Positions 20,955 to 64,000 of a stretch of 64,000 bases of DNA are shown piece after piece. The stretch's first letter is position 1. Every line of letters starts with the position of its first letter. The notes under the pieces are model-generated. The model worked only from the letters and a program-made list of their open reading frames with translations, was not told the DNA's origin and searched no databases. The stretch is from Leclercia adecarboxylata (GTDB lineage: Bacteria; Pseudomonadota; Gammaproteobacteria; Enterobacterales; Enterobacteriaceae). The stretch lies in assembly GCA_901472455.1 (NCBI GenBank), contig LR590464.1, forward strand, positions 1,736,001 through 1,800,000, written 5' to 3'. Made by a program: the position numbers and the translations under genes.

Positions 20955-21015
20955 ATCGTCCGTTACCGTCGGATTACAGAATGAGCAGGATTCTACCTGT
21001 AGCCGGGTGGGCATC

Positions 21016-21055: not shown

Positions 21056-21118
21056 ATGACGGGAGACGGGTTGAGATTTAAGCTATCCACTGAAATTTTG
21101 GCCATCAGCGGAGGAGAC

Positions 21119-21547
21119 ATGCTCGATAAAACTCGACGCCGCGCTACGTTTTCAGCAAGAAGCCGCTCAACTTGGCGTGCCCAGCGTCAGGAGATTCTGG
21201 CCGCCATAATATCGCAAACGCCGATACCCCCCGGGTTTCAGGCGCGTGAATATCGATTTTTCCAGTGAATTCAAAGAAAGTGATGGAGCGTGGGTCGGGC
21301 CGAAAACAGCGGTGTTGCCCTTGCGCTGACCTCTGCACGTCATATTCCTGCAGAGACCGTCACGACCCCCCAATACCGATTTACTTTATCGCATCCCGGA
21401 TCAGCCATCTCTGGACGGTAACACCGTCGATATGGATCGGGAGCGTACGCAGTTCGCTGATAACAGTCTCAAAGTACCAGATGGGGCTGACCGTTTCTCG
21501 GTGGACAGATTAAAGGCATGATGAGTGTTCTGCAGGGAGGCAACTAA
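21119..21547 (+). CDS. flgB: Flagellar proximal rod protein FlgB (multiple apparent frameshifts)
   Basis: Rod component next to the MS ring. ATG after GGAGGAG. Translated blocks in changing frames match Flg[52 protein letters not shown], and the end [14 protein letters not shown]. The span is 429 nt where 417 are expected, so about a dozen surplus bases. The stop overlaps the flgC start region by 2 bases. First gene of the flgBCDEFGHIJ operon. Confidence 0.87.
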
Positions 21548-21549
21548 TA

Positions 21550-21954
21550 ATGGCCTTACTCAATATCTTTGATATCGCGGGTTCCGCGCTGACCGCGCAA
21601 TCCCAACGTCTGAACGTGGCCGCCAGTAACATGGCGAACGCCGACAGCGTGACCGGCCCGGATGGCCAACCCTACCGCGCTAAACAGGTTGTGTTCCAGG
21701 TGGATGCTGCACCGGGTGCGGCAACCGGCGGGGTAAAAGTGGCCAACGTGATTGAGAGCCAGGCCCCGGACAAACTGGTGTACGAGCCGGGCAACCCGCT
21801 GGCCGACGCCAGTGGCTACGTCAAAATGCCGAACGTGGATGTGGTGGGTGAAATGGTTAACACCATGTCGGCGTCCCGCAGCTACCAGGCTAACGTAGAA
21901 GTGCTGAACACCGTGAAGAGCATGATGCTTAAAACGCTCACTCTGGGCCAGTAA
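21550..21954 (+). CDS. flgC: Flagellar proximal rod protein FlgC
   Basis: 134-aa rod protein, the same length as E. coli. Begins [20 protein letters not shown] and contains the rod/hook N-terminal signature in AASNMANAD and the C-terminal helix [20 protein letters not shown]. Exported by the flagellar type III apparatus without a cleaved signal. Intact, marking the end of the error-rich zone. Confidence 0.96.
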
Positions 21955-21965
21955 AGGAGAGATCA

Positions 21966-22671
21966 ATGTCCATTGCAGTCAATGTAAATGACAGGACGGC
22001 TACGACTGGCGTCGGTGGCACTACTGGCAGTAACTCCCTCACCGGAAGCAATGCTTCCGATCTGCAGGGCAGCTTTCTGACGCTGCTGGTCGCCCAGCTG
22101 AAAAACCAGGATCCAACCAACCCGATGCAGAACAACGAATTGACCACGCAGCTTGCGCAGATCAGTACGGTGAGCGGCATCGAGAAACTGAACACCACGC
22201 TGGGTTCTATTTCCGGGCAGATCGACAACAGCCAGTCGATGCAGGCCAGCACGCTGATTGGCCATGGCGTGATGATCCCTGGTTCGACCGTTCTGGCGGG
22301 CACCAGCGGTGCCGAAGGCTCGACCACCACCTCAACCCACGCCATTTGGTGTTGAGTTGCAGCAGAGCGCAGACAAAGTGACGGCCACTATCACCGATAA
22401 GTCCGGTGCAGTGATACGGACTATTGACATTGGCGAGCTGAAAGCAGGCGTCCATACCTTTACCTGGGATGGTACTCAGACCGACGGCAGCACGGCACCA
22501 AACGGCTCTTACAACGTAGCGATTTCCGCCAGCAGCGGCAGCACGCAGCTGGTGGCACAGCCACTGCAGTTTGCAATGGTGCAGGGTGTGATCCGCAGCG
22601 GTGGCGGTAACACGCTGGATCTCGGCACTTACGGTACCACCACGCTCGACGAAGTTCGGCAGATTATTTAA
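21966..22671 (+). CDS. flgD: Flagellar hook assembly protein FlgD (one apparent frameshift)
   Basis: Hook cap/scaffolding protein required for FlgE polymerisation. N-terminal disordered part, then LTLLVAQLKNQDPTNPMQNN signature, then Tudor-like and Fn-III-like region. One extra C near 22339 (TCAACCCACGCC) shifts the frame at TTSTTPFGVEL. Corrected length 234 aa (E. coli 231). 11 bases after flgC. Confidence 0.94.
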
Positions 22672-22697
22672 GCCCTAACATTTACCAGGAGTAACTC

Positions 22698-23961
22698 ATG
22701 GCCTTTTCACAAGCGGTCAGCGGCCTGAATGCTGCAGCCACTAACCTCGACGTCATTGGTAACAACATTGCCAACTCCGCGACCTACGGCTTTAAGTCCG
22801 GTAGCGCGTCATTCGCGGATATGTTCGCCGGTTCCAAAGTCGGTCTGGGCGTAAAAGTCGCCGGGATCACCCAGGACTTTTCAGATGGTACCACCACCAA
22901 CACCGGTCGTGGTCCTGGATGTGGCTATCAGCCAGAGCGGTTTTTTCCGTATGCTCGACAGCAACGGTTCTGTTTTTTACAGCCGTAACGGTCAGTTCAG
23001 CCTGGACGAAAACCGCAACCTGGTGAACATGCAGGGCCTGCAGCTGACCGGCTATCCGGCAGCAGGTAGCCCTCCGACGGTGCAGACCGGTGCTAACCCA
23101 CAGGCGATTACCATCCCTAATGACCTGATGCCCGCGAAAGCGACCAGCACTGCGGCGCAGCAGATCAATCTGAACTCCACGGACAGCGTGCCGAACATTG
23201 CGTTTTGACGCGACCAATGCCAACCCGGATTCAGACAGCTTCAACAAGAAAGGCACTATCACCGTTTACGACAACCAGGGTAACGCCCACAACATGTATG
23301 TCTACTATGTGAAAACAGCAGACAACAAATGGGATCTCTACACCCAGGACGGTAGCGTGACGAACGGTAAAATTACCAAAGCTGCACAGATGAACTTCGA
23401 CAGCAACGGTAACCTGGCCGGTATCTACAACTACAACGCCGCTGGCGTGTTGAGCGCGACCCCAAATGGCAACCCGGCGATCAACGTGACGACCGATCCA
23501 CTGAGCGGTGCGCTGCCGGTGACCTTCTCCCTGAGCTTCCTGAACTCCATGCAGCAGAACACCGGGCGAACAACATCGTGGCAACCAACCAGAACGGCTA
23601 CAAGCCGGGCGACCTGGTGAGCTATCAGATCAACGATGACGGTACCGTGGTAGGTAACTACTCCAACGAACAAAACCAGGTGCTGGGTCAGATCGTCATG
23701 GCGAACTTCGCCAACAACGAAGGTCTGCAGTCTGAAGGTAACAACGTCTGGTCTGCTACCCAGTCTTCAGGCGTGGCGCTGCTGGGCACCGCCGGTTCCG
23801 GTAACTTCGGTACCCTGACCAACGGCGCGCTGGAAGCTTCCAACGTCGACCTGAGTAAAGAGCTGGTCAATATGATCGTCGCGCAGCGTAACTATCAGTC
23901 GAACGCGCAGACCATCAAAACGCAGGATCAGATCCTCAACACGCTGGTTAACCTCCGCTAA
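22698..23961 (+). CDS. flgE: Flagellar hook protein FlgE (three apparent frameshifts)
   Basis: Forms the universal joint hook. N-terminal MAFSQAVSGLNAAATNLDVI and C-terminal VAQRNYQSNAQTIKTQDQIL helices form the D0 core. Three lesions: extra C near 22914 (GGTCCTGG), extra T near 23205 (GCGTTTTGAC), and one missing base near 23566 (ACCGGGCGAAC). Net correction gives 420 aa, somewhat longer than the roughly 402 aa of E. coli, the difference lying in the variable outer domain. Confidence 0.93.
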
Positions 23962-40761: not shown

Positions 40762-41716
40762 ATGTATACGAAGATTTTAGGTACCGGCAGCTATCTGCCA
40801 AAACAAGTGCGAACCAACGCCGATCTGGAAAAAATGGTAGATACGTCTGACGAGTGGATCGTCACGCGTACAGGTATCCGCGAACGTCGTATTGCCGCGC
40901 CAGATGAAACAGTTTCCACCATGGGCTATGAAGCCGCACAGCGTGCGCTGGAAATGGCGGGTGTCGATAAAGACGACATCGGCCTGATTATCGTTGCGAC
41001 AACTTCTGCAACGCATGCCTTCCCGAGCGCAGCGTGCCAGATTCAGAGCATGCTGGAGATCAAAGGTTGCCCGGCGTTCGACGTTGCCGCTGCGTGCGCA
41101 GGCTTTACCTATGCGCTGAGCATTGCCGATCAATATGTAAAATCTGGCGCGGTGAAAAATGCGCTGGTGATCGGTGCTGACGTGCTGGCGCGCACCTGCG
41201 ATCCAACCGATCGCGGGACGATCATTATTTTTGGTGATGGTGCAGGGGGCTGTCCTGTTAGGACAATCTGAAGAACCCGGCATCATCTCCACGCATCTGC
41301 ATGCTGACGGTAGCTATGGCGAACTGTTAACGCTGCCAAACGCCGATCGTGTTAATCCGGACAACGCCATCTATCTGACCATGGCCGGTAACGAAGTGTT
41401 CAAAGTGGCGGTCACAGAGCTGGCGCACATCGTTGACGAGACGCTGGCAGCGAACAATCTGGAGCGTTCCGCCCTTGACTGGCTGGTGCCGCATCAGGCG
41501 AACCTGCGCATTATTAGCGCCACGGCGAAGAAACTCGGCATGTCTATGGATAACGTTGTGGTGACGCTGGATCGTCATGGCAATACGTCTGCAGCATCCG
41601 TGCCCTGCGCGTTTGACGAAGCGGTGCGCGATGGACGCATTCAACGAGGCCAACTGGTCTTGCTCGAAGCCTTCGGTGGCGGTTTCACCTGGGGTTCTGC
41701 GCTGGTTCGTTTCTAG
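40762..41716 (+). CDS. fabH: Beta-ketoacyl-ACP synthase III (one apparent frameshift)
   Basis: Starts fatty acid synthesis by condensing acetyl-CoA with malonyl-ACP. Catalytic C112 in [13 protein letters not shown]; the His and Asn of the triad are in [11 protein letters not shown] and [12 protein letters not shown]. One extra G near 41248 (GCAGGGGGCTG) shifts the frame at [13 protein letters not shown]. Corrected length 317 aa, the E. coli length. Confidence 0.95.
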
Positions 41717-41731
41717 TATAAGGATAAAAAA

Positions 41732-42663
41732 ATGACGCAATTTGCTTTTGTGTTTCCCGGCCAGGGTTCTCAGGCCGTTGGAATGTTGTCCGGCTTAGCG
41801 GAGCAGTATCCAGTCATCGAAGCGACCTTCCGTGAAGCGTCGGATGCACTGGGCTATGATCTTTGGGCGCTGACCCAGCAAGGGCCAGCCGAAGAGCTGA
41901 ATAAAACCTGGCAGACCCAGCCTGCACTGCTGACCGCATCGGTCGCACTGTGGCGCGTATGGCAACAGCAGGGCGGCAAAACGCCAGCACTGCTGGCCGG
42001 TCACAGCCTGGGTGAATACTCTGCGCTGGTTTGCGCCGGGGTGATTGCGTTTGCTGATGCCGTGCGTCTGGTTGAGCTGCGCGGTAAATTCATGCAGGAA
42101 GCGGTGCCGGAAGGTACGGGCGGCATGTCAGCCATTATTGGTCTGGATGATGCTTCCATTGCAAAAGCCTGTGAAGAATCTGCAGAAGGTCAGGTGGTTT
42201 CTCCGGTAAACTTCAACTCGCCGGGCCAGGTGGTTATCGCCGGTCCATAAAGAAGCGGTTGAACGTGCAGGCGCAGCCTGTAAAGCTGCGGGCGCCAAAC
42301 GTGCGCTGCCGCTGCCGGTGAGCGTACCGTCACACTGCGCGCTGATGAAGCCTGCTGCTGAGAAGCTGGCGGTAGAGCTGGAAAAAATCACCTTTAACGC
42401 GCCAACCATTGCGGTGGTAAACAACGTTGATGTGCAGTGCGAAACCGCGCCAGAGGCCATTCGCCATGCGCTGGTTCGCCAGCTGTACAGCCCGGTTCAG
42501 TGGACCAAAACCGTTGAGTTTATGGCGTCCCAGGGCGTTGAGCACCTGTATGAAGTCGGTCCGGGTAAAGTTCTCCACCGGTCTGACCAAGCGTATTGTT
42601 GATACCCTGACTGCCTCGGCTATTAATGAGCCGGAAGCCCTGTCAGCGGCACTCACGCAGTAA
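41732..42663 (+). CDS. fabD: Malonyl-CoA-ACP transacylase (two apparent frameshifts)
   Basis: Loads malonyl groups onto ACP; essential. Start MTQFAFVFPGQGSQAVGM, with nucleophile loop AGHSLGEYSALV and catalytic His in SVPSHCALMKPAAE. Extra C near 42246 (GGTCCATAAAG) and extra C near 42574 (CTCCACCGG). Corrected 309 aa, the E. coli length, ending SAALTQ. Confidence 0.95.
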
Positions 42664-42676
42664 GAAGAGGAATACC

Positions 42677-43477
<801 letters not shown>

Positions 43478-43571
43478 TAAGACCTGCCGGGATTTAGTTG
43501 GCAAATTTTTCAACATTTTATACACTACGAAAACCATCGCGAAAGCGAGTTTTGATAGGAAATTTAAGAGT

Positions 43572-43808
43572 ATGAGCACTATCGAAGAACGCGTTAAGAA
43601 AATTATCGGCGAACAGCTGGGCGTTAAGCAGGAAGAAGTTGTGAACTCCGCTTCCTTCGTTGAAGACCTGGGCGCAGATTCTCTTGACACCGTTGAGCTG
43701 GTAATGGCTCTGGAAGAAGAGTTTGATACTGAGATTCCGGACGAAGAAGCTGAGAAAATCACCACCGTTCAGGCTGCCATTGATTACATCAACGGTCACC
43801 AGGCGTAA
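43572..43808 (+). CDS. acpP: Acyl carrier protein
   Basis: 78-aa carrier of growing acyl chains. The phosphopantetheine attachment motif [18 protein letters not shown] has Ser37 (counting Met). One substitution near the N terminus relative to E. coli (VVNSASF for VVNNASF). The 156-bp gap after fabG likely holds its own strong promoter, as in E. coli. Intact, flanked by a terminator. Confidence 0.97.
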
Positions 43809-43812
43809 GTGA

Positions 43813-45145
<1,333 letters not shown>

Positions 45146-45189
45146 GGCTGACAGCCGGGGCGGCCGATCGCCTTCCCCGGCAAATTGAT

Positions 45190-45219
45190 AAAAAAGGTCC
45201 GCTTGTCGGGCCTTTTTTA
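45190..45219 (+). terminator. Terminator after fabF
   Basis: A-rich arm then GGTCC...GGGCC pairing and CCTTTTTT, about 45 bp after fabF. A second GC hairpin GCCGGGG...CCCCGGC precedes it at about 45155-45182. Confidence 0.7.
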
Positions 45220-45288
45220 TTCGGTTTTATTCCCTTGTCCACAGCCCTCCTTCCTGCCAGACTATTCGCCCATTCAAAAGGAGCCATC

Positions 45289-46100
45289 ATGTTCTTGATC
45301 AATGGCATACCACAGGAAACATTGCCCGCGAGCGACAGGGCTATACAGTTTGGTGACGGCTGCTTCACGACGGCACGCATTGCTGCGGGCCAGGTCTGTC
45401 TGCTGGATGCCCATCTGCAGCGCTTGCAGATGGCCTGTGAAAAAACTGCTTATCCCTTTCGTTGCGTGGGCAGAATTACAGCGTGAGATGGTAGAGCTTG
45501 CGCGGGGAAACGAGCGTGGCGTGCTGAAGGTCATTATCAGCCGGGGAAGCGGCGGCAGAGGTTACAGCGCGGCGAACTGCCTGCATCCGGTCCGAATCCT
45601 CTCGGTGTCGGGGTATCCCGCCCATTATGATGGCTGGCGTCGCGAGGGCATCACGCTCGAGTTAAGTCCGGTGCAGCTGGGACGTAACCCGCATCTTGCC
45701 GGTGTTAAGCACCTGAACCGGCTTGAACAGGTGCTGATCCGCACCCATCTTGAACAGACCGATGCGGATGAGGCCTTGGTTCTTGACAGCGAAGGGTTCG
45801 TTACGGAATGCTGTGCGGCGAATTTATTCTGGCGTAACGGGAAAGATGTTTTTACCCCCCCGGCTGGATCAAGCAGGCGTTAACGGCCTGATGCGCCAGT
45901 TTTGTCTGCAACAGCTGGCACACTCCGGTTATCGCGTTGTCGAAGTACACGCCCGGGAGGCTGTACTGGCTGAGGCCGACGAAATGGTGGTCTGCAATGC
46001 GCTGATGCCCGTCGTGCCGGTTCGCCAGTATGGTTCTCAACGTTTTTCATCGCGTGAGTTGTACGCTTTTTTAGCCCCTCAGTGTGAGCAAATCAGATAG
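45289..46100 (+). CDS. pabC: Aminodeoxychorismate lyase (two apparent frameshifts)
   Basis: PLP enzyme forming p-aminobenzoate for folate. Start [20 protein letters not shown] after AAGGAG. Class IV aminotransferase features [11 protein letters not shown] and [20 protein letters not shown]. The PLP Lys lies in LAGVKHLNR. Extra A near 45443 (TGAAAAAACTG) and extra C in a C7 run near 45860. Corrected 269 aa, the E. coli length. mltG starts 3 bases later. Confidence 0.93.
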
Positions 46101-46102
46101 TC

Positions 46103-47127
46103 ATGAAGAAAATGTTGCGTTTTATTCTCCTCATCCTTGTCGTGCTGGGCATTGCCGCTGGGGTGGGGATGTGGAAAGTTCGCCAGCTGGCGGGCAGTCA
46201 AATCCTGATCGAGACGGAGACCATCTTTACCCTGAAACCGGGCACCGGACGGTTGGCGCTGGGTGAGCAGCTGTACAATGAGAAGATCATTAACCGCCCA
46301 CGGGTGTTCCAGTGGTTATTACGTGTGCAGCCGGAGCTGTCGCATTTCAAAGCGGGCACGTATCGCTTTACGCCTGGGATGACCGTCAAGGAACTGCTGC
46401 AGCTGCTGGAGAGCGGTAAAGAGGCGCAGTTCCCGCTGCGTTTCGTGGAAGGGATGCGCCTGAGCGACTACCTGAAGCAGCTGCGGGAAGCTCCTTACAT
46501 CAAGCACACCCTGCAGGATGACAGCTACGCTACCGTTGCTCAGGTTCTGAAGTTTGAGCATCCTGAGTGGGTGGAAGGGTGGTTCTGGCCGGACACCTGG
46601 ATGTATACCGCAGGCACTACCGATGTGGCGTTGCTGCAGCGTGCGCATAAAAAAATGGTCGCTGCGGTGGATAAAGCCTGGGAAGGGCGGATGGAAAATC
46701 TGCCGTATAAAGATCAAAACCAGTTCGTCACCATGGCCTCGATCGTCGAGAAAGAGACGGCAGTCGCGAGTGAACGGGATCAGGTTGCCTCGGTATTTAT
46801 CAATCGCCTGCGTATCGGCATGCGTCTGCAAACCGATCCGACGGTGATTTACGGTATGGGGGGAAAATTACAAGGGCAATATTTCACGTAAAGACCTGGA
46901 AACCCCGACCGATTATAATACCTATGTCATTAGCGGCTTACCGCCGGGGCCAATCGCCACACCGGGGCAGGCATCGCTGAATGCCGCCGCGCATCCTGCA
47001 AAAACGCCGTATCTCTATTTCGTCGCGGACGGAAAGGGTGGACACACTTTTAACACCAATCTTGCCAGTCATAATCGTTCAGTTCAGGACTATCTGAAGG
47101 CACGTAAGGAAAAAAATGCGCCAGTAA
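46103..47127 (+). CDS. mltG: Endolytic murein transglycosylase MltG (two apparent frameshifts)
   Basis: Inner-membrane lytic transglycosylase thought to end nascent glycan strands. One N-terminal membrane anchor ([18 protein letters not shown]), LysM-like part, then YceG domain with catalytic Glu in [18 protein letters not shown]. Extra G in ATGGGGGGAAAA near 46860 and an extra C near 47121. Corrected 340 aa, the E. coli length, ending KEKNAQ. Its last codons overlap the tmk start. Confidence 0.93.
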
Positions 47128-47760
47128 TTACATCGTCATTGAGGGGCTGGAAGGCGCCGGGAAAACCACCCGCACGTGACGGTGGTGGTCGAGACGCTCA
47201 AACAGTGTGGCATTGAAGAAATGATCTTCACCCGCGAACCGGGCGGCACTCAGCTGGCTGAAAAATTGCGTAGCCTGGTACTGGACATCAAATCGGTCGG
47301 GGATGAGGTCATTACCGATAAAGCCGAAGTCATGATGTTCTACGCCGCGCGTGTCCAACTGGTTGAAACCGTGATCAAACCCGCGCTGGCGCGGGGATGC
47401 TGGGTGATTGGCGATCGTCACGATCTCTCCACCCAAGCCTATCAGGGCGGTGGACGCGGCATTGATCAGCATATGCTCGGCACACTGCGCGATGCGGTGC
47501 TCGGGGATTTCCGTCCTAACCTGACGCTCTATCTCGATGTGACGCCCGAAGTGGGTCTGAAACGCGCCCGCGCCCGCGGCGAGCTGGATCGTATTGAGCA
47601 GGAGTCGCTGGACTTCTTTAATCGCACCCGCGCCCGTTACCGTGAGCTGGCCGCCGAGGACCCTTCGATCCGCACCATCGATGCGACCCAGCCGCTTGAA
47701 GACGTAATGAACGACATTCGCAAAACAGTCACTGACTGGCTGAAGGAACAACAGGCATGA
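47116..47760 (+). CDS. tmk: Thymidylate kinase (three apparent frameshifts)
   Basis: Essential kinase making dTDP from dTMP. The P-loop [11 protein letters not shown] is encoded at about 47136-47170, then [17 protein letters not shown] and the lid [14 protein letters not shown]. Extra C near 47121 (shared with mltG), extra C near 47169 and extra G near 47180 split the first 25 codons from the rest. Corrected 213 aa, the E. coli length. Start ATG 47116 overlaps the mltG end; the stop overlaps holB ATG. Confidence 0.93.
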
Positions 47761-48764
47761 AATGGTACCCATGGTTGCGCCCGCACTTTGAACAGCTGGT
47801 GAACAGCTATCAGTCCGGTCGGGGGCATCATGCGTTACTGATCCAGTCGCTGCCGGGCATGGGCGATGAGGCGTTGATCTACGCCATCACCCGTTTTTTA
47901 ATGTGCCAACAGCCGCAGGGATACAAAAGCTGCGGTCAGTGCCGTAGCTGTCAGCTGATGCAGGCAGAAACGCACCCGGATTATTACGCGCTGGAGCCGG
48001 AGAAGGGCAAGGCTACGCTGGGTATTGATGCGGTGCGCGCCATCAGGTGAAAAGCTGTACGAGCGCGCGCGGCTCGGCGGGGCGAAAGTCGTCTGGCTGA
48101 AGGATGCCGCCCAGCTTACCGAGGCAGCAGCCAACGCGCTGTTAAAGACTCTTGAAGAGCCGCCGGAAAATACCTGGTTCCTGATGGCCTGCCGTGAGCC
48201 TGGACGACTCCTGGCGACCCTTCGCAGCCGCTGTCGTTTGCATCATCTTAGCGTGCCGCAGGAGGCCCTGGGCTATCAGTTGGCTTGCACGAGAGGTGAC
48301 AACGTCACAGGAAGCGGCGTTAAGCGCGCTGCGCCTGAGCGGCGGAGCTCCTGCCGCGGCGCTGGCATTGTTGCAGCCCAACGTCCAGGACGCAACGGAA
48401 CAACTTTGCCAGGCGCTCGGCGGGGTGGCAGACAGCGGCGACTGGGCTGAGCCTGCTCCCGGCTCTCAACCATGATCAGGCACCCGATCGCCTGCACTGG
48501 CTGGCGGCTCTGCTGTTGGATGCCCTTAAAATTCAGCAGGGAGCAACCCTTGTCAGCAATGTCGATGCCTGGTCGCTCGTTAATAGTCTGGCGCAGCGCC
48601 TGCCAGGTGTGGCGTTGCGGGCTATCCTTCATGATGTCTGCCAGTGTCGGGAACAACTACTAAGCGTAACGGGGCTGAATCGGGAGCTTGTCCTGACCGA
48701 CCTGTTACTCACAATCGAGCATTACCTGCAACCGGGCACAACGCTGCCTGCATCCTATCTCTGA
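47757..48764 (+). CDS. holB: DNA polymerase III subunit delta' (three apparent frameshifts)
   Basis: Essential clamp-loader subunit. [20 protein letters not shown] start, degenerate nucleotide site [12 protein letters not shown], zinc-type cysteines [10 protein letters not shown], and [20 protein letters not shown] sensor region. Extra G near 48044 (ATCAGGTG), extra G near 48270 (CTGGGCTATC) and extra G near 48443 (TGGGCTGAGC). Corrected 334 aa, the E. coli length. Starts inside the tmk stop (ATGA). Confidence 0.93.
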
Positions 48765-53791: not shown

Positions 53792-54029
53792 GTGATTAAC
53801 CCTGTAAACAGACGTTTCAGCCGTATCTGAAATTCTGTTTTAAGATTTAAGGGGAGGGTGCAGTGGGCGACAGCGTATAAATTGCGCTATAAGGAAAGAA
53901 TTCGAGGGATAAGGTTGAAAGGATTGGAGAAAGTCGCTCATACTCTTGAGTCGTGTCACATAATAGTGCGCCTGCGACGGGGGGTTATCTCCGGGCACGT
54001 CGGCAGATTAAATGAACAAGGAAAATCTC

Positions 54030-54389
54030 ATGGCTGAAGAAACTATTTTCAGTAAAATTATCCGTCGCGAGATCCCGGCGGATATCGTCTATCAGGACGA
54101 TCTGGTTACCGCTTTTCGCGATATTTCTCCGCAGGCTCCTACGCACATCCTCATTATTCCTAATATTCTGATTCCGACGGTAAATGACGTGAAAACTGAG
54201 CATGAACTGGCATTAGGCCGTATGCTGACAGTAGCCGCGAAAATTGCTGAACAGGAAGGCGTGGCCGAAGACGGATACCGTTTGATCATGAACTGCAACC
54301 GCCACGGTGGTCAGGAAGTTTATCATATTCATATGCATCTGCTCGGCGGTCGCCCGCTGGGACCGATGCTGGCGCATAAAGGTCTCTAA
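54030..54389 (+). CDS. hinT: Purine nucleoside phosphoramidase HinT
   Basis: HIT-family enzyme hydrolysing AMP-NH2-type phosphoramidates. 119 aa from [18 protein letters not shown], the E. coli length. Histidine triad HIHMHLLGG near the C terminus. An upstream in-frame ATG at 54012 adds six residues, but the family start fits. First gene of the hinT-ycfL-lpoB-thiK-nagZ-ycfP run. Intact. Confidence 0.96.
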
Positions 54390-54390
54390 G

Positions 54391-54765
54391 ATGCCTGCAG
54401 GACGGATTGCGATACTGTTCATCATGATGGTGCTGGCGGGATGTAAATCTCAGCCAGCGATACCCGTCAATGATGAACAATCGCTGGTAATGGAATCATC
54501 AGTGCTGGCGGCAGGTATCACCGCCGACAAGCCTTCTCTAACGATCAGCGAAATTCAACCATCCGCTTCCTCTGTGCTATTTAATGAAAGAGATGAGGCG
54601 GTTACCGTCCATTACCGATTTTTCTGGTATGACGCCCGTGGCCTGGAAATGCATCCACTTGAAGCACCGCGTAGCGTAACGATCCCGGCGAATTCGTCGG
54701 TTAAACTTTACGGCGGCGCAAATTACCTGGGCGCGCATAAGGTCAGACTTTATCTATATCTCTAA
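54391..54765 (+). CDS. ycfL: YcfL lipoprotein
   Basis: 124-aa lipoprotein (E. coli 125). Signal MPAGRIAILFIMMVLAGCKS with lipobox LAGC. Conserved VNDEQSLVMESS, VTVHYRFFWYDARGLEMHPL and C-terminal GAHKVRLYLYL. Function not established. Starts one base after hinT and ends 10 bases before lpoB. Intact. Confidence 0.93.
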   Translation: MPAGRIAILFIMMVLAGCKSQPAIPVNDEQSLVMESSVLAAGITADKPSLTISEIQPSASSVLFNERDEAVTVHYRFFWYDARGLEMHPLEAPRSVTIPANSSVKLYGGANYLGAHKVRLYLYL

Positions 54766-54775
54766 GGGGTGAATT

Positions 54776-55426
54776 TTGATTAAAAACATCAGTCGTTACA
54801 CGCTTGTCACGGCTTTTGCACTGTTCCTGTCAGGCTGTATTAGCCGCACTGAGCAACCACCCGCACCGGTGGAAGAGGTGAAACCGGGTGTTGAGCAGCC
54901 GGTTCAACCGACCCAGCCTGTGCCAACCGTGCCTACTGTGCCGTCCGTACCTGAGCAACCAGGCCCGATAGAACATCAGGAAGAGCCCGCGCAGCCTGCG
55001 CCGCGTGAGCGTCATTACGACTGGAACGGCGCGATGCAGCCAATGGTCGGCAAAATGTTGCAGGCGCAGGGCGTCAACGCAGGCAGCGTACTGCTGGTGG
55101 ACAGCGTCAACAACCGGACCAACGGAAGCCTGAATGCCGGGGAAGCCACCGAAACGCTGCGCAATGCCCTGGCCAACAACGGCAAATTTACCCTCGTGTC
55201 GGCGCAGCAGCTGGCCGTGGCCAAGCAGCAGTTAGGCCTCTCTCCACAGGACAGCCTTGGCTCACGCAGTAAAGCCATCGGCATTGCCCGCAACGTAGGC
55301 GCGCAGTATGTGCTCTACTCCAGCGCGACCGGCAACGTCAACTCACCAGCGCTGCAAATGCAGCTGATGCTGGTTCAGACAGGTGAAATTATCTGGTCGG
55401 GCAAAGGTGCAGTTCAGCAACAGTAA
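54776..55426 (+). CDS. lpoB: Penicillin-binding protein activator LpoB
   Basis: Outer-membrane lipoprotein that reaches through the periplasm to activate PBP1b. 216 aa (E. coli 213). TTG start ([21 protein letters not shown]) with AAGGGG upstream; lipobox LSGC. Pro-rich linker (residues about 27-80) then the globular domain beginning [17 protein letters not shown] with [20 protein letters not shown]. The gene end overlaps the likely thiK start. Intact. Confidence 0.94.
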
Positions 55427-56231
55427 TCTGACGCGCGACACACTGCTGTCGCGCTTTTTCCCGCAATATCGTCTTATCGCGCCGCAGACCCATACCGGGT
55501 TGAGCGGCGCGAGTTGCATTATTGAGCATGCCGGACAGCGGCTGGTGTTGCGCCAGTATCACGCTGCACTGGCTACGCCAGCTCATTTTCGTCGCCAGTA
55601 TCATGCGCTCCGCCATCTTTCCGCCGACATTGCTCCTCAGCCGCGGTTTTACAGCCCCGACTGGATAGCCGTCGATTATCTGTCCGGCGAGATCAAAACC
55701 GGGTTACCTGCCGCACCTGCGCTTGCCGCAATGCTGTATCATCTGCATCAACAGCCCAGGTTTGGCTGGCGTATCACCCTGGCCCCACTGCTGGAGCAGT
55801 ACTGGTTGCAGGCCTCGCCGTCCCGGCGCACGCCGTTATGGCTACGATGGCATAAGCGGCTGCAAAAACGGGGCGAGCCGCGTCCGCTCCGCCTGGCGCC
55901 GCTGCATATGGATGTTCATGCGGGTAATATCGTGCATACAGAGACCGGCTGTCGGCTGCTGGACTGGGAATACGCCGGAGACGGCGACATTGCCCTCGAG
56001 CTGGCCAGCGTCTGGTCTGAGAGCGACGCCCAGCGTCAGCTGCTGCTCGCCGCGTACAGTGAGATCGCGCAGCTTGACCGCTTCCTGCTGCAACGCCAGG
56101 TGAATCGCTGGCGCCCGTGGGTGCTGATGCTGATGGCAGGCTGGTTTGAGCTGCGCTGGCAACAATCACAAGACAAACATTTTATTACGCTGGCCGATGA
56201 GATCTGGCGCCAGTTAGAAACAACAGAATAA
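55407..56231 (+). CDS. thiK: Thiamine kinase
   Basis: Phosphorylates thiamine in the salvage route. Choline-kinase-like fold: [20 protein letters not shown] catalytic loop and [20 protein letters not shown] metal-binding segment. GTG start at 55407, inside the end of lpoB, gives 274 aa, the E. coli length; an upstream GTG at 55383 is possible. Less conserved at the N terminus than its neighbours. Intact. Confidence 0.9.
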
Positions 56232-56242
56232 GAGAGGTTCGT

Positions 56243-57268
56243 GTGGGTCCGGTCATGTTGGATGTGGAAGGTTATGAACTGGATGCGGAGGAGCGCGAGA
56301 TTCTGGCGCATCCGCTGGTGGGTGGTCTGATCCTGTTTATGCGCAATTATCACGATCCGGCGCAGCTGCGGGAGTTGGTGCGTCAGATCCGTGAGGCCTC
56401 CCATCACCGTCTGGTGGTGGCAGTCGATCAGGAAGGCGGCCGCGTGCAGCGTTTTCGCGAGGGCTTTACCCGTCTGCCTGCGGCCCAGTCATTTGCGGCG
56501 TTACTCGGGCTTGAAGAGGGCGGCAAACTGGCGCAGGAGGCCGGCTGGCTGATGGCCAGCGAAATGATCGCCATGGACATTGATATCAGCTTTGCACCGG
56601 TGCTGGACGTGGGCCATATCAGTGCCGCCATCGGGGAGCGCGCGTATCACGAGGATCCGCAGAAGGCGCTGCAGATCGCCACCCGCGTTATCGACGGGAT
56701 GCACGAGGCCGGAATGAAAACCACCGGCAAACATTTCCCTGGGCACGGCGCCGTGACGGCAGATTCCCATAAAGAGACCCCGCGTGACCCACGCCCGCAG
56801 GCGGAGATCCGCGCCCGGGATATGTCGATTTTCAAATCGCTGATCAGCGACAACAAGCTCGATGCCATCATGCCCGCGCATGTGATCTACCCCGATGTCG
56901 ATCCGCGTCCAGCGAGCGGCTCGCCGCACTGGCTGAAAACGGTCCTGCGCCAGGAGCTGGGCTTCAACGGTGTGATTTTCTCTGACGATCTGTCGATGGA
57001 AGGCGCGGCGATCATGGGCAGCTACGCCGAACGCGGCCAGGCATCGCTGGACGCGGGTTGCGATATGATCCTGGTCTGCAATAATCGTAAAGGCGCAGTC
57101 AGCGTGCTAGATAACCTGTCGCCGATCAAGGCTGAACGTGTTACACAATTGTATCATAAAGGTTCTTTTAGCCGTCAGGATCTGCGGGATACAGCACGCT
57201 GGAAAACGGTGAATGCGCAGCTTGAGGCGCTTCATGAGCGCTGGGAAGCGCATAAAGCGGGGCAATAA
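56243..57268 (+). CDS. nagZ: Beta-N-acetylhexosaminidase NagZ
   Basis: Cytosolic GH3 glycosidase removing GlcNAc from GlcNAc-anhydroMurNAc muropeptides during wall recycling; supplies AmpR inducers. 341 aa, the E. coli length, from a GTG start after GAGAGG. Acid/base His176 in the [16 protein letters not shown] loop and nucleophile Asp248 in [13 protein letters not shown]. Intact. Confidence 0.97.
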
Positions 57269-57302
57269 CCCCTCCTGGCAAGCGTAGTGTGGCGAGGATA
57301 CG

Positions 57303-57845
57303 ATGATCATCTATTTGCACGGTTTTGATTCGAACAGTCCCGGTAATCACGAGAAAGTCCTGCAGTTGCAGTTTATCGACCCGGATGTACGGCTGATTAG
57401 CTATAGCACACGCCATCCGAAGCATGATATGCAGCATCTGCTGAAAGAAGTGGACAAAATGTTGCAGTTGAACGTTGACGATCGCCCGTTGATCTGTGGC
57501 GTCGGCCTCGGGGGATACTGGGCGGAGCGCATCGGGTTCTTGTGCGATATTCGCCAGGTGGTGTTCAATCCAAACCTGTTCCCGAACGAGAACATGGAAG
57601 GCAAGATCGACAGGCCGGAAGAGTATGTCGATATTGCCACCAAGTGCGTAAGCAACTTTCGCGAAAAGAACCGCGATCGCTGTCTGGTGATCCTCTCCCG
57701 CAACGATGAGGCACTGAACAGCCCACGTGCCGCGGAGCTGCTGCACCACTACTACGAAATTGTCTGGGATGAAGAGCAGACGCATAAGTTCAAGAATATT
57801 GCCCCCCATCTGCAACGTATCAAAGCGTTCAAGACATTAGGTTAA
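57303..57845 (+). CDS. ycfP: YcfP, alpha/beta-hydrolase-like UPF0227 protein
   Basis: 180 aa, the E. coli length. N-terminal [20 protein letters not shown] (hydrolase-like HGF), and [17 protein letters not shown], a nucleophile-elbow-like turn in which the usual Ser is replaced by Gly, so catalysis is doubtful. C-terminal region has [18 protein letters not shown]. Function unknown. Last gene before a terminator. Intact. Confidence 0.93.
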
Positions 57846-57862
57846 TTCCTGATTACAGCCTA

Positions 57863-57899
57863 AGCCCGGCCACGTAACGTGAGCCGGGCTTTCTTTTTG
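57863..57899 (+). terminator. Terminator after ycfP
   Basis: AGCCCGGC / GCCGGGCT stem with a 12-base loop and TTCTTTTT. Confidence 0.85.
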
Positions 57900-57930
57900 C
57901 TAAGCTTGTGTAAATTTTAAGCGGCAAAAC

Positions 57931-57944
57931 TTGATGCATATCAA
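57931..57944 (+). promoter_or_regulatory. FNR site upstream of ndh
   Basis: TTGATGCATATCAA is a perfect FNR consensus TTGAT-N4-ATCAA. FNR represses ndh without oxygen in E. coli, where a site occupies the same place. A second, AT-rich control region runs to the start codon. Confidence 0.9.
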
Positions 57945-58078
57945 TTTTGGTATGACCAATGCACCGAACATGTTATTCTCATGACAGTTGAATGGTTTCA
58001 GTGCTGTAACCTGTTGTTAATTAAAGGTTATTTTCATAACTTTTAGTTAACAATTGGTTAATAATTTAGGGGGTCACG

Positions 58079-59383
58079 TTGACTACACCATTGAAAAAGA
58101 TAGTGATTGTGGGTGGTGGTGCTGGCGGTCTGGAACTGGCTACGCAGTTAGGAAAGAAGCTTGGTCGCGGTAAAAAGGCCAAAGTAACACTCGTCGATCG
58201 TAACCACAGCCACCTGTGGAAACCGCTATTGCACGAAGTTGCTACCGGTTCTCTGGATGAGGGCGTTGACGCGCTGAGCTATCTGGCACATGCGCGCAAC
58301 CACGGTTTCCAGTTCCAGCTGGGTTCGGTGATGGATATCAACCGCGAAAGCAAAACCATTACCCTGGCAGAGCTGCGTGATGAGAAGGGCGAGTTGCTGG
58401 TACCGGAGCGCAAGCTGGCGTATGACACGCTGGTTATGGCGCTGGGCAGCACCTCTAACGACTTCAACACCCCGGGCGTTAAAGAGCATTGCATCTTCCT
58501 CGACAACCCGCACTAGGCGCGTCGTTTCCATCAGGAGATGCTGAACCTGTTCCTGAAATACTCCAATAATCTCGGCGCAAATGGCAAGGTAAACATCGCC
58601 ATCGTGGGCGGCGGTGCTACCGGCGTTGAGCTTTCTGCGGAGCTGCATAACGCGGTGAAACAGCTGCACAGCTACGGCTACAAAGGGTTAACTAACGACG
58701 CCCTGAACGTGACCCTGGTGGAAGCGGGCGAGCGTATTCTGCCTGCGCTGCCGCCACGTATCTCTGGCGCTGCTCACAACGAGCTGACCAAGATGGGCGT
58801 GCGTGTCCTGACTCAGACCATGGTCACCAGTGCCGATGAGCATGGCTTGCACACCAAAGATGGCGAATACATCAAAGCCGATCTGATGGTCTGGGCGGCA
58901 GGTATCAAGGCGCCTGATTTCATGAAAGAGATTGGCGGCCTGGAAACAAACCGCATCAACCAGCTGGTGGTAGAGCCAACGCTGCAAACCACCCGCGACC
59001 CTGACATTTACGCCATTGGTGACTGCGCCTCCTGCGCACGCCCGGAAGGCGGGTTTGTTCCTCCTCGCGCCCAGGCCGCTCACCAGATGGCCAGTCTGGC
59101 GCTGCATAACATCCTTGCGCAGGCGAAAGGCAAAACCCTGAAGAATTACGTCTACAAAGACCACGGTTCTCTGGTGTCGCTCTCAAACTTCTCTACAGTG
59201 GGTAGTCTGATGGGTAACCTGATGCGCGGCTCGATGATGGTAGAAGGGCGCATTGCGCGCTTCGTCTATATCTCGCTGTACCGTATGCACCAGGTGGCGC
59301 TGCACGGTTACTTCAAAACCGGACTGATGATGCTGGTTGGCAGCATCAACCGCGTGATCCGACCGCGACTGAAACTGCACTAA
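58079..59383 (+). CDS. ndh: NADH:quinone oxidoreductase II, with in-frame amber codon
   Basis: Single-subunit respiratory NADH dehydrogenase. TTG start ([20 protein letters not shown]), FAD motif at the N terminus and NADH motif [20 protein letters not shown]. The reading frame is intact for the full 434 aa of E. coli except for TAG at 58514-58516 in CAC-TAG-GCG, where the family has Gln (codon 146, HQARRFHQ). This is a single C-to-T change, unlike the indels elsewhere. Unless it is a read error or suppressed, Ndh would stop at 145 aa, before the NADH site. Confidence 0.94.
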
Positions 59384-59390
59384 GACCCAT

Positions 59391-59420
59391 GCCCCTCCGC
59401 ACTCGCTGGAGGGGCTTTTT
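59391..59420 (+). terminator. Terminator after ndh
   Basis: GCCCCTCC / GGAGGGGC stem with a 9-base loop, followed by TTTTT. Confidence 0.88.
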
Positions 59421-59580
59421 CAGCATATTCTTCTGTGTATCTCGCCCCTGGGGTCTAAGAGTCCTCCTAAACAGACCTTTTTTGTGTTTATCCCCACATT
59501 TTTAATCCTTTCTCTGATTTGCGGACACACCTCTTTAGTTGCAGAATTGTTACCAATAGCAACGAAAAGGAGAACGTCCC

Positions 59581-60120
59581 ATGAATAAATCCATGGTGGC
59601 AGGTATAGGGATTGGCGTGGTTGCCGCGTTAGGCGTGGCGGCAGTTGCCAGTCTTAATGTCTTTGAACGTGGCCCACAATACGCGCAGGTTGTTTCGGCG
59701 ACACCCATTAAAGAGACGGTGAAAACACCGCGTCAGGAGTGCCGTAATGTAACCGTAACGCATCGTCGTCCGGTGCAGGATGAAAACCGGATTGCCGGAT
59801 CTGTACTGGGTGCAGTGGCGGGTGGCGTGATTGGTCATCAGTTTGGTGGCGGGCGCGGTAAAGATGTCGCGACTGTTGTGGGTGCGCTGGGCGGCGGTTA
59901 TGCCGGTAACCAGGCTCAGGGAGCACTCCAGGAGCGGGATACTTACACCACGACGCAGCAGCGTTGTAAAACCGTTTACGACAAATCGGAAAAAATGCTC
60001 GGCTACGATGTGACGTACAAAATTGGCGATCAGCAGGGCAAAATTCGCATGGATAAAGATCCCGGCACGCAAATCCCTCTCAACGGTGATGGGCAGTTGG
60101 TACTGAATAATAAAGCATAA
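59581..60120 (+). CDS. ycfJ: YcfJ glycine-zipper 2TM-domain protein
   Basis: 179-aa protein, the E. coli length. N-terminal hydrophobic segment (MVAGIGIGVVAALGVAAVAS), then a glycine-zipper hairpin SVLGAVAGGVIGHQFGGGRG / VVGALGGGYAGNQAQGAL that can span a membrane, then a C-terminal domain with a Cys pair. Envelope protein of unknown role. AAAAGGAG precedes the start. Intact. Confidence 0.93.
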   Translation: MNKSMVAGIGIGVVAALGVAAVASLNVFERGPQYAQVVSATPIKETVKTPRQECRNVTVTHRRPVQDENRIAGSVLGAVAGGVIGHQFGGGRGKDVATVVGALGGGYAGNQAQGALQERDTYTTTQQRCKTVYDKSEKMLGYDVTYKIGDQQGKIRMDKDPGTQIPLNGDGQLVLNNKA

Positions 60121-60141
60121 AAAAATCTGTTCTCTGCGTTT

Positions 60142-60178
60142 AGCTCCTCATTCGCTCAGGCTGGGGAGCTTTTTTTAT
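60142..60178 (+). terminator. Terminator after ycfJ
   Basis: AGCTCC ... GGAGCT pairing followed by TTTTTTT. Confidence 0.7.
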
Positions 60179-60304
60179 TTATAAAAAAGACCTCAACTCC
60201 CGCAGCGATGCGTCAGGAATAAGGTCTTTCTTAAGGATAAAGCAGAGTTAACCGTGGTTACAGGTCAAATTCGTTATCCTGGCGCAGTAACATAAATCCT
60301 GTTA

Positions 60305-60412
60305 TCAGTACGGAAAGGAATGCAAATAAAACTGACCCACCACATAAAACCAGAGACCGAATAACAATGTAATGACCATTAACACCTTGAAAAATGGTAA
60401 TAGCAAAATCAT
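60305..60412 (-). CDS. Putative 35-residue membrane protein
   Basis: Small ORF MILLLPFFKVLMVITLLFGL followed by a short aromatic tail ending HSFPY. One strongly hydrophobic helix. A very good ribosome-binding site AGAAGGAG lies 8 bases before the ATG, and the upstream in-frame extension to 60493 has none. It lies between ycfJ and comR, where I know no E. coli gene. No homologue recognised. Similar in size and build to other enteric single-span small proteins; expression is not shown. Confidence 0.55.
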   Translation of the reverse strand: MILLLPFFKVLMVITLLFGLWFYVVGQFYLHSFPY

Positions 60413-60601
60413 TTTTATTCTCCTTCTGAATGTGAATAGCCAGAACATCTCCCTTATGACCACGCGTCTAATCATTAGCACGTCAATAATCACCCGTTAA
60501 GGATAGCAAGCGGCAGACATGTGGTGATAGTTTTTACCTATCTTTAAACAGATTTGTCTGAAAGTGGGGCAGAAGCAGGGCGGTAAACCGCCCTTTTTTG
60601 A

Positions 60602-61238
60602 TCAGGATTTCAGGAGTTCAGGCCACAGGCGCAAGGTGGTTTGCGTGATAGTCTGCAGTTTTTCCAGGCTGGCACCCTCCCGGGGCGCTGATTGACATTC
60701 CCTGCAGAATGCAGCTCAGATACTGCGCCAGTTTTTGCGGATCGCACTGGGCGGGGATCTCACCGCGCTGCTGACGTTGCTGTAAAAACCGGCACAGCGT
60801 CTCTTCCTGCATCGCATGGCGAGATTTAACCGTATGGGCAATCTCTTCTGACGACGCCGCCAGCGTCGCTGACGTGTTAATCATAAAACAGCCTGCGGGC
60901 GTGTCTTTGCTGGTAAAGCAGGTCGCCACTGCGGTGAAGTAGTCTTCCAGCGCGTCTTCAACGCGCTTCTCTTCGCAAAACAGCTGCGCTTCATGGCGGG
61001 CAGCGAATCGGCTGATATAGCGATCCAGCACCGCGCGGAACAGTCCTTCTTTATTGGTAAATTCTGCGTACAGCGTAGGCGCTTTGGCCCCGGTCGCTGC
61101 GACCAGGTCAGCCAGCGATGTGGCTTCATACCCATGCTGCCAGAACAATGTCATGGCCTTGTCCAGCGCCGCTTCCCTGTCGAACACTTTTGGTCGGCCA
61201 CGGCTTTTCTTAGCGCAACGCGTGTCATCGGTTGTCAT
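60602..61238 (-). CDS. comR: TetR-family copper-responsive repressor ComR (one apparent frameshift)
   Basis: Represses the divergent bhsA gene; copper relieves repression in E. coli. N-terminal HTH region GRPKVFDREAALDKAMTLFW and ATSLADLVAATGAKAPTLYA. Cys in AGCFMINTSATL. An extra base near 60683 (minus strand GCGCCCCGGG) breaks the C terminus; corrected end is LRLWPELLKS and 211 aa in total (E. coli 210). Shares a 240-bp control region with bhsA. Confidence 0.9.
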
Positions 61239-61366
61239 GAGCCGTTGTACCTCAATTGGTTTGTTGAATGACCATTATAAAAATAATCCCTTCTGGCAGC
61301 CAGCGCTGAATTCATAAAATAAATATCTTCATATCAACATGAATTTAAACGCTTTTAATTTTATTT

Positions 61367-61378
61367 TAACGATCGTTA
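61367..61378. promoter_or_regulatory. Candidate ComR operator 1
   Basis: Perfect 12-bp palindrome TAACGATCGTTA in the comR/bhsA divergent region. Confidence 0.6.
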
Positions 61379-61393
61379 TAAAAATAGTTTGAC

Positions 61394-61409
61394 CGTGATG
61401 GGGATCACA
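61394..61409. promoter_or_regulatory. Candidate CRP site in comR/bhsA region
   Basis: CGTGATGGGGATCACA has CGTGA-N6-TCACA, one base off the CRP consensus half-sites. Confidence 0.6.
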
Positions 61410-61421
61410 TTTATCATTTAG

Positions 61422-61435
61422 TTATCGATCGTTAA
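61422..61435. promoter_or_regulatory. Candidate ComR operator 2
   Basis: TTATCGATCGTTAA, a near-palindrome sharing CGATCGTTA with operator 1, 56 bp centre to centre and on the bhsA side. Confidence 0.55.
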
Positions 61436-61478
61436 GTTAATGCTTACGACATCCCATCACTTGCATAAGGTTCTCATT

Positions 61479-61735
61479 ATGAAAAACGTAAAACACTGAT
61501 CGCCGCAGCCGTACTAAGCTCACTCTCTTTTGCCAGCTTCGCTGCTGTGCAGGTTCAGTCTACCCCTGCGGATCAACAAAAAGTGGGCACGATTGCCGCA
61601 AATGGCGGGCCTAACCTGGGTTCACTGGAAAGCCAGTTGGCGCAAAAAGCCGATGAGATGGGTGCAAAATCTTTCCGTATCACCTCTGTTACCGGTCCAA
61701 ATAACCTGCACGGTACTGCGGTGATCTACAAATAA
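61479..61735 (+). CDS. bhsA: Multiple stress resistance protein BhsA (one apparent frameshift, deletion)
   Basis: Small DUF1471/YhcN-family secreted or outer-membrane protein; loss affects biofilm, copper and stress tolerance in E. coli. Start MKNVKTLIAAAVLSSLSFAS (after correction) with a signal peptide cut near FAA. A missing A in the GTAAAAC run near 61490 gives an early stop; the mature part from VQVQSTPADQQKVGTI is open. Corrected 85 aa, the E. coli length. Divergent from comR. Confidence 0.92.
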
Positions 61736-61767
61736 GCATGGCTTAACCCTCATTAATGCCACTGCGA

Positions 61768-61801
61768 AAAAAAACGCTCTGCAATTGCAGAGCGTTTTTT
61801 A
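61768..61801. terminator. Bidirectional terminator between bhsA and ldtC
   Basis: Twelve-bp stem AAAACGCTCTGC / GCAGAGCGTTTT with loop AATT, A-rich before and T-rich after. Confidence 0.92.
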
Positions 61802-61814
61802 TTTGGCTATCTGG

Positions 61815-62767
61815 CTACAGGGCCTGAACCTCAGCATGGCGGGTAACATCCACCGGCATTCCCGAGCGGGCCTCCATTGCACGCTCCATCACTGTTTCAT
61901 CTGCACTGGCTTTGAAGCTCTGCTGGGCACTATTCAACACAATCGGCAGGGTCTGGGGATCGTCATTCAGCTGCTTCGAGAGCGGTTGATGCACTTCCAC
62001 CAGCCGCACGCCGCCTGGCTCTTCTGACACCTTAACCGGCGTATTCATGATATTCACTTTGGTGCCGGGCTGTATGACGCGGAACAGCGTCTCGATGTCA
62101 TTATCACGCAGGCGGATACAGCCGGAGCTGACGCGCATGCCAATCCCGAAATCGGCGTTAGTGCCGTGCAACAGGTAGACACCACCGTAGGCGGCGGAGG
62201 CGAATCGCATGATGTCCCATCGGGTTTTCCGGCCCGGCAGGCACGACCGCAGGCAGATCGATGCCCTGGGCTTTATAACGGCGCGGATATTGGCGGTCGG
62301 GGTCCAGGTAGGGTTGGCGCGTTTGTCCGATACCGTGGTCACCATGGTTGGCGTCAGGGTATCGCCCCCAGCTGGCCAATGCCAATGGGATAGACCGTGA
62401 CCTCATTTTTACCCGGCGGGTAATAATAGAGACGCAGTTCGGCCAGGTTGATCACTATCCCTTCCCGGGGCGCGTCGGGGAGCAGGGTCTGTAATGGGAT
62501 GGTCAGCACGCTGCCGCGCGGGGAACATAGGGGTCCACCCCAGGGTTAGCCTGGAGCAGGGCCAGGAAAGCCGACATTATATTTTTTGGCAATCGCTTCC
62601 AGCGAGCCGCCGTCATTTTCCACCACATGAAAGCGGTTCTCGCCCACGAGACGGCTGCCTGACGGGGGCAAGGGCCAGGTATTGGCCCGGGCCGGCAGAG
62701 CAAAGGCCAGGGTCGAGAGCAGCGCAACCAACGATATCCAACGGGTAAAACGCGGAGTTGTCATCAT
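61815..62767 (-). CDS. ldtC: L,D-transpeptidase LdtC (five apparent indels)
   Basis: Periplasmic enzyme that attaches Braun lipoprotein to peptidoglycan (YcfS). Signal peptide ending [12 protein letters not shown], LysM-like part ([20 protein letters not shown]), then the YkuD domain with [20 protein letters not shown] containing the catalytic His and Cys. Lesions: extra T near 62573, missing G near 62517, missing G near 62366, missing C near 62287, extra C near 62202. Net correction gives 317 aa (E. coli 320). Deletions dominate here, unlike upstream. Confidence 0.9.
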
Positions 62768-62891
62768 CACCAGAATCCATAGCAATAAAGATTATTGTTA
62801 TCTGAAAGTTAATTGATAATTATGGCGAATGGACGTGTCGGGAAATCCAGGCGTATTGCAAAGAGTTGTAAATTGCGCGGGGAAATATCAG

Positions 62892-62917
62892 GCCGGGCGA
62901 TCGTAGGGTCGCCCGGC
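62892..62917. other. Hairpin after mfd
   Basis: GCCGGGCGA / TCGCCCGGC stem with an 8-base loop just downstream of the mfd stop; no strong T-run. Confidence 0.5.
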
Positions 62918-62923
62918 AGTGGG

Positions 62924-64000
62924 TCAGGCGACGGCGTTCTCTTCGAGCTGACGCATAAAGTTACGCACCCATTCCATGCGGGTTTTCCGTTCCGCCAGAT
63001 CCTGGGTGAATTTCAGACGCGTTGGGCCGTCCAGGCGATAGTGCTGAGGCTGCTTTTGCAGCAGGCTAATCAGCCACATAGGATCGACATGGTTCTTCTC
63101 GGCAAACTCAATCATGCCGCCTTTATCGTTCCCTTCCAGTTTGCGGATCCCAAGTTTTTGCGCCTGCTGACGTAACCGGGCGATATCCAACAGGTTACGC
63201 GCCGCATCCGGCAGCAGACCAAAGCGGTCGATCAGCTCCACCTTGATCTCGTCGAGGCTCGCTTCGTCTTTGGCGCTGGCAATGCGTTTATAGAATGACA
63301 GACGGGTATTAACGTCCGGGATAAAGTCATCCGGCAGCAGGGCGGGCATCCGCAGTTCAACTTCTGTTTGCTGGCTGGTGAGATCTTCCAGTGATGGCTC
63401 ACGGCCTGCCTTGAGGGCATCGACGGCGTTCTCCAGCAGCTCCATATACAGCTGGAACCCGATGGTCTCCATCGATCCGCTCTGATCTTCACCAAGCAGT
63501 TCACCCGCGCCGCGGATCTCGAGGTCGTGCGTCGCCAGCGCAAAGCCAGCCCCCAGATCTTCCAGCGAGGCGATAGCTTCAAGACGTTTTTGCGCATCGG
63601 TGGTCATTGCCTTCGGATGCGGGGTCATCAGCCAGGCATAGGCCTGATGGTGCGAACGCCCGACACGACCACGCAGCTGGTGAAGCTGCGCCAGACCAAA
63701 GTGATCCGCCCGCTCAATGATGATGGTATTGGCGGTAGGAATGTCGATCCCGGTTTCAATGATGGTGGTACACACCAGCACGTTGAACCGCTGGTGGTGG
63801 AAGTCGTTCATCACCCGTTCCAGCTCGCGCTCGCGCATCTGCCCGTGGCCGATGGCGATCCGCGCTTCCGGTACCAGTTCCGCCAGCCGGTCGGCCGCTT
63901 TCTGGATATTTTCCACGTCGTTGTAGAGATAGTAGACCTGGCCGCCGCGCAGGACTTCACGCAGGATCGCTCGCGTACCACCAGATTATCGTATTCACGT
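62924..64000 (-). CDS. mfd: Transcription-repair coupling factor Mfd, C-terminal part (window edge)
   Basis: ATP-driven translocase that removes stalled RNA polymerase and recruits UvrA. The window holds the last 350 or so residues: helicase domain 2 with VLVCTTIIETGIDIPTANTI and QLRGRVGRSHHQAYAWL, then the C-terminal UvrA-gate domain to QLEENAVA. A missing G near 63970 (minus strand CGCGAGCGATCC for CGCGAGGCGATCC) breaks the frame at VVRE|AILREVLRGG. The gene continues beyond 64000. Confidence 0.95.

What the first reader, a model, noticed from the sequence alone, without database searches (positions are those of the whole stretch)
58514..58516. In-frame amber codon in otherwise intact ndh
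TAG replaces the CAG expected at codon 146. It is a substitution, not an indel, and nothing else in the 1.3-kb gene is disturbed. It may be a true nonsense mutation (loss of NDH-2, tolerable because NDH-1 exists), a suppressed amber, or a rare substitution error.
Basis: partly seen in the sequence, partly recalled or inferred. Interest (0 to 1): 0.6.

Follow-up and report, generated by a model that had tools for sequence, protein, structure and literature searches.

The report
Lone amber codon in ndh
A single-letter change puts a stop signal in the middle of a respiratory gene that is intact in every close relative examined; it is either a recent ordinary mutation or a base error in a poor-quality genome assembly, and nothing found suggests the stop is read through.

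Summary
In detail: ndh (58079-59383, +, TTG start) has an in-frame TAG at codon 146 (58514-58516) and is otherwise open to its natural stop. None of the 60 other genomes of the genus searched has a stop in ndh; 29 of 29 aligned have CAG there. None of 84 tRNA genes found has a CUA anticodon, so a suppressed amber is not supported. But ndh lies in a 6.2-kb stretch without such indels, and in rRNA operons substitutions are no more frequent than in a relative. The change is C to T at the inner C of a CCAGG (Dcm) context, a reported mutation hotspot. A genuine, very recent nonsense mutation (0.50) is barely favoured over a consensus error (0.45); only reads can decide. Either way it is ordinary.

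The parts
58079..58516 (+). ndh, 5' part: TTG start to the in-frame TAG (145 aa), with the N-terminal glycine-rich stretch of the FAD fold (motif role recalled)
   Evidence: PF07992 profile positions 1-126 of 291
58514..58516 (+). in-frame TAG, codon 146; CAG in 29 of 29 congeners aligned
58538..59383 (+). rest of ndh from the first downstream ATG (281 aa), without the N-terminal part of the fold
   Evidence: PF07992 profile positions 143-291 of 291
54011..60208. stretch without a one-base indel specific to this genome (by the criterion); ndh lies inside it
   Evidence: neighbouring events at 54010 and 60209; nearest to the TAG is 1695 bases away

Best explanation
An ordinary type II NADH dehydrogenase gene (ndh) with a recent nonsense mutation. 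A C to T transition at the inner C of a CCAGG site (the cytosine that Dcm methylates) turned glutamine codon 146 into TAG. The product would stop at 145 aa, without the NADH-binding and C-terminal parts, so NDH-2 activity would be lost; the cell would rely on NDH-1. Shown: the TAG, the open remainder, CAG in the relatives aligned, the CCAGG context in most of them, no CUA tRNA found, nuoG present. Inferred: that the base is real, the deamination route, loss of activity, tolerance.
For: The gene has no indel and lies in a 6.2-kb stretch without any, while 119 one-base indels specific to this genome were called in the window. In eight rRNA operons (first 5 kb of each) this assembly has 13 singleton substitutions against 76 inserted and 31 deleted columns (spacers included); a congener's eight operons have 11, 4 and 0. 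Besides ndh I found no nonsense substitution inside a credible gene among 140 compared ORFs, some judged by position only. In 29 indel-free ORFs changes at conserved residues are not in excess (69 per 339 third-position changes; relatives 58/197, 37/146, 42/199, 59/242, 231/700). The site reads CCAGG in 22 of 29 congeners; the genome has vsr and a dcm homologue, in two pieces. A review (PMC9520237, passages seen) reports an 8-fold higher C to T rate at that cytosine in E. coli and Salmonella. Of 220 one-base insertions, 198 double a neighbouring base; the T here matches neither neighbour.
Against: The assembly is demonstrably poor. ndh is without a stop in 60 of 60 other congeners, so loss is rare. 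The rest of the gene shows no decay: 95 synonymous and 4 nonsynonymous codon differences, the stop included, from the nearest relative, so a real mutation must be very recent. A paper on long-read assembly errors (PMC12007338, passages seen) lists substitutions as a large share of gene-fragmenting errors in some assemblies (517 of 951 in one Citrobacter). The 13 rRNA substitutions are spread over 7 of 8 operons, whereas the congener's 11 sit in 3, which would fit some being errors. No second sequence of this strain or species was in the collections searched; the nearest ndh is 92% identical.
Confidence: 0.5

Rival explanations
1. Consensus base error in a poorly polished long-read assembly; the strain has an intact ndh.
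For: Completeness 78.15% on one 5.06-Mb contig; 275 frameshifting indels in 90 of 140 compared ORFs against 23 in 22 of 140 for a congener; three tRNA genes with two- or four-base anticodons; no stop in ndh in the 60 other congeners; no decay elsewhere in the gene. One stop in 140 ORFs is within what a modest substitution error rate would give (inference). Substitutions can be a large share of long-read assembly errors (PMC12007338, passages).
Against: No excess of substitutions is seen in rRNA operons or indel-free ORFs; the local stretch is indel-free; a transition at the inner C of CCAGG fits mutation better than a random error. A systematic miscall at Dcm sites is not seen: of 103 CCWGG sites conserved in five relatives 12 differ in this genome, 1 of them by a transition at the inner C of either strand (the ndh site is not among the 103, as two of the five relatives read ATCAGG).
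Confidence: 0.45
2. A suppressed or read-through amber: the stop is decoded as an amino acid and full-length NDH-2 is made.
For: The rest of the frame is intact and conserved.
Against: 0 of 84 tRNA genes found has a CTA anticodon; no other in-frame TAG inside a credible gene in the ORFs sampled; no stop in ndh of relatives.
Confidence: 0.03
3. Translation restarts at the downstream ATG (58538) and a shortened 281-aa protein does something useful.
For: An open frame of 281 aa with AGGAG just before the ATG.
Against: AGGAG abuts the ATG with almost no spacing; the product lacks the N-terminal part of the fold (PF07992 positions 143-291 only).
Confidence: 0.02

Closest known systems
Enterobacterial ndh (type II NADH:quinone oxidoreductase, NDH-2)
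   Same: 98% protein identity over 434 residues to a congener's Ndh; about 81% DNA identity to E. coli ndh; the congener's Ndh matches solved NDH-2-type structures such as 5na1 and 4nwz
   Different: in-frame TAG at codon 146
Amber hotspots at Dcm sites (CCAGG to CTAGG; the lacI work is recalled, no call)
   Same: same base change; the context is CCAGG in 22 of 29 congeners
   Different: whether the change happened in the cell is not established here
Gene-fragmenting errors in long-read bacterial assemblies (PMC12007338, passages seen)
   Same: the assembly shows an indel-rich pattern in every region sampled
   Different: this change is a substitution in an indel-free stretch

Membership tests
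NDH-2 (ndh) | two-dinucleotide-binding flavoprotein fold (PF07992) over the gene | tested here: met
   both pieces match PF07992, positions 1-126 and 143-291; no NCBIfam model passed its cut-off among the 25 rows shown for the congener's Ndh
NDH-2 (ndh) | uninterrupted frame | tested here: not met
   TAG at codon 146
NDH-2 (ndh) | NADH:quinone oxidoreductase activity | not testable with these tools
   needs a biochemical assay
Suppressed amber | tRNA with CUA anticodon | tested here: not met
   0 of 84 tRNA genes in the regions around the 82 Rfam matches; the list is not surely complete: the selenocysteine tRNA I would expect is not in it
Dcm-site deamination mutation | C to T at inner C of CCWGG, with Dcm active | tested here: inconclusive
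   CCAGG in 22 of 29 congeners, CATCAGG in 7, so the ancestral context is likely but not certain; dcm homologue in two pieces, vsr present without a stop; methylation not tested
Assembly base error | reads disagree with the consensus | not testable with these tools
   no reads held

The most novel reading that the evidence does not exclude
The TAG is real and tolerated because readthrough without a dedicated suppressor tRNA (for example by a near-cognate glutamine tRNA) yields a low dose of NDH-2.
Probability: 0.02. Interest if true: 0.5.

Novelty: already known. Interest (0 to 1): 0.08.

Why it matters
Little in itself. If real, it is a simple natural ndh null in a Leclercia-like strain. The practical point is wider: this genome record carries frameshifts in 90 of 140 ORFs compared, so gene losses read from it should not be believed without reads.

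Tried and rejected
Systematic miscall of Dcm-methylated C: not supported, 1 of 103 conserved CCWGG sites has an inner-C transition. Raised substitution error: not detected in 29 indel-free ORFs or rRNA operons. Amber suppressor: none among 84 tRNA genes found. Widely read-through TAG: the other in-frame stops flagged in this genome lie, on inspection of nine ORFs, in ORFs that look antisense or spurious (mostly nonsynonymous differences, in the relative too) or upstream of a credible start. Three were judged by position or company only: codon 5 of the ORF at 8967-9566, codon 3 of a 410-codon ORF in the nuo region, and an ORF with 14 indels whose two stops are shared by G059.

An excess of C to T over T to C among changes private to this genome (573 to 170; ratios 1.7-2.7 in the five relatives, my division) was seen. 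In indel-free ORFs 208 of 262 such C to T changes are at third positions, which fits lineage mutation. In indel-bearing ORFs only 95 of 189 are, a lower share than in G032 (65 of 103); the reading frames there are unreliable because of the indels, so I could not tell error from divergence. Not followed further. Literature listings on ndh/nuo double mutants and Dcm hotspots were seen as listings; only PMC12007338 and PMC9520237 were looked into, by passages.

Rows dropped: 8 of 61 ORFs and 22 of 162 not aligned over 90% in all genomes compared. The ORF sets are mechanical (120 aa or more) and contain some antisense ORFs. One search used the 29 best-matching of 59 other genomes. The family search matched 212 of 295 genomes and printed only part of them; every printed row other than this genome read 'none' for stops.

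Full report
What is there. Window 58079-59383 (+) is ndh. It begins TTG, and codon 146 (58514-58516) is TAG. The frame then runs on to TAA. A congener's Ndh aligns over all 434 residues at 98% identity with one TAG inside. The stop splits the PF07992 match into profile positions 1-126 and 143-291.

Is it unusual? Yes, for this gene. Of 61 genomes of the genus searched, this one included, only this one has a stop in ndh (G033 matches over residues 1-246 only, being split over contigs). Of 30 loci aligned, 29 have CAG and this one TAG; among 388 residues invariant in the other 29 it is the only difference in this genome. Against the nearest relative the gene shows 95 synonymous and 4 nonsynonymous codon differences, the stop included. 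So the gene was under ordinary selection until very recently, or still is. In the wider family every other printed row had no stop, but the print-out was cut. The organism belongs to a Leclercia/Enterobacter group: some congeners' contigs have the lengths of named records, such as Leclercia adecarboxylata UBA3338 and Enterobacter mori LMG 25706 (my matching by length).

The assembly. The genome is one contig of 5,062,884 bases yet 78.15% complete by the tool's figure. Aligned with five congeners, the window has 119 one-base indels specific to this genome, 103 insertions and 16 deletions. In 53 of 61 window ORFs that could be compared with G039, this genome has 86 frameshifting indels; G032, G059, G020 and G052 have 1, 3, 0 and 5. 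In four regions, 140 of 162 ORFs compared with G032, it has 275 in 90 ORFs and G059 has 23 in 22. Three tRNA genes have two- or four-base anticodons, and the dcm homologue is in two pieces. Of 220 one-base insertions 198 double a neighbour. This looks like an under-polished long-read assembly (inference; the platform is not known).

Does that explain the TAG? Not directly, because the recognisable errors are indels. In the first 5 kb of eight rRNA operons, singleton columns in this genome number 13 substitutions, 76 insertions and 31 deletions, spacers included; in eight operons of G032, 11, 4 and 0. The 13 are spread over seven operons and the 11 sit in three, so some of the 13 may be errors. 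In 29 indel-free ORFs, changes at conserved residues are not in excess relative to third-position changes. The indels are patchy, and ndh sits in a stretch without any from 54,011 to 60,208. Apart from ndh I found no nonsense substitution inside a credible gene in the sampled regions (three cases judged by position or company only). On the other side, one stop in 140 ORFs is about what even a low substitution error rate could give, natural ndh stops are evidently rare, and a paper on such assemblies lists many substitution errors (PMC12007338, passages). The two readings have similar weight.

What tips it slightly. Twenty-two of 29 congeners read CCAGG across the site and seven ATCAGG. CCAGG is the Dcm recognition sequence, and the change is C to T at its inner cytosine. 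The genome has vsr and a dcm homologue. A review seen in passages (PMC9520237) reports an 8-fold higher C to T rate at that base in E. coli and Salmonella genomes. A transition there is what a real nonsense mutation would most likely be; a random error would be so less often (inference). A systematic miscall at methylated Dcm sites is not supported: 1 of 103 conserved sites has an inner-C transition.

Suppression. The regions around all 82 Rfam tRNA matches hold 84 tRNA genes by ARAGORN, none with CTA. The list may not be complete; a selenocysteine tRNA, which I would expect, is not in it. If the TAG is real, full-length product is not expected in useful amount. The downstream ATG at 58538 would give 281 aa without the N-terminal part of the fold.

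Consequence if real. NDH-2 would be lost. NDH-1 is represented by nuoG, apparently shortened in this assembly (782 against 915-920 aa). That E. coli tolerates loss of ndh when nuo is present is general knowledge, not from a call.

Verdict. Observation confirmed; a recent nonsense mutation (0.50) or a consensus error (0.45); suppression or restart unlikely. Ordinary in either case.

Noticed in passing
window 13000-23300, 41200-48500, 60200-63970: Clusters of one-base indels specific to this genome (119 called in the window, 103 insertions): the assembly is under-polished in patches.
   Followed up: yes
L183 (G000:C1:368700-369400) and L187 (G000:C1:1268700-1269700): Three tRNA genes with two- or four-base anticodons (cc, ggcc, ccat), probably assembly indels.
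   Followed up: partly
G000:C1:3198017-3199373: dcm-vsr locus with the dcm homologue in two pieces in this assembly, one piece in G032 and G059.
   Followed up: no
whole window: Changes private to this genome are rich in C to T (573, against 170 T to C), more so than in five congeners; lineage mutation bias or, in indel-bearing parts, possibly error.
   Followed up: partly
G059 stretches L115-L118, L216, L217, L222, L223, L228, L229: Congener G059 has 23 frameshifting indels in 140 ORFs against G032, nearly all one-base insertions, so it may also carry residual errors.
   Followed up: no
G000:C1:3463741-3465696: nuoG open frame of 782 aa against 915-920 aa in three relatives.
   Followed up: no
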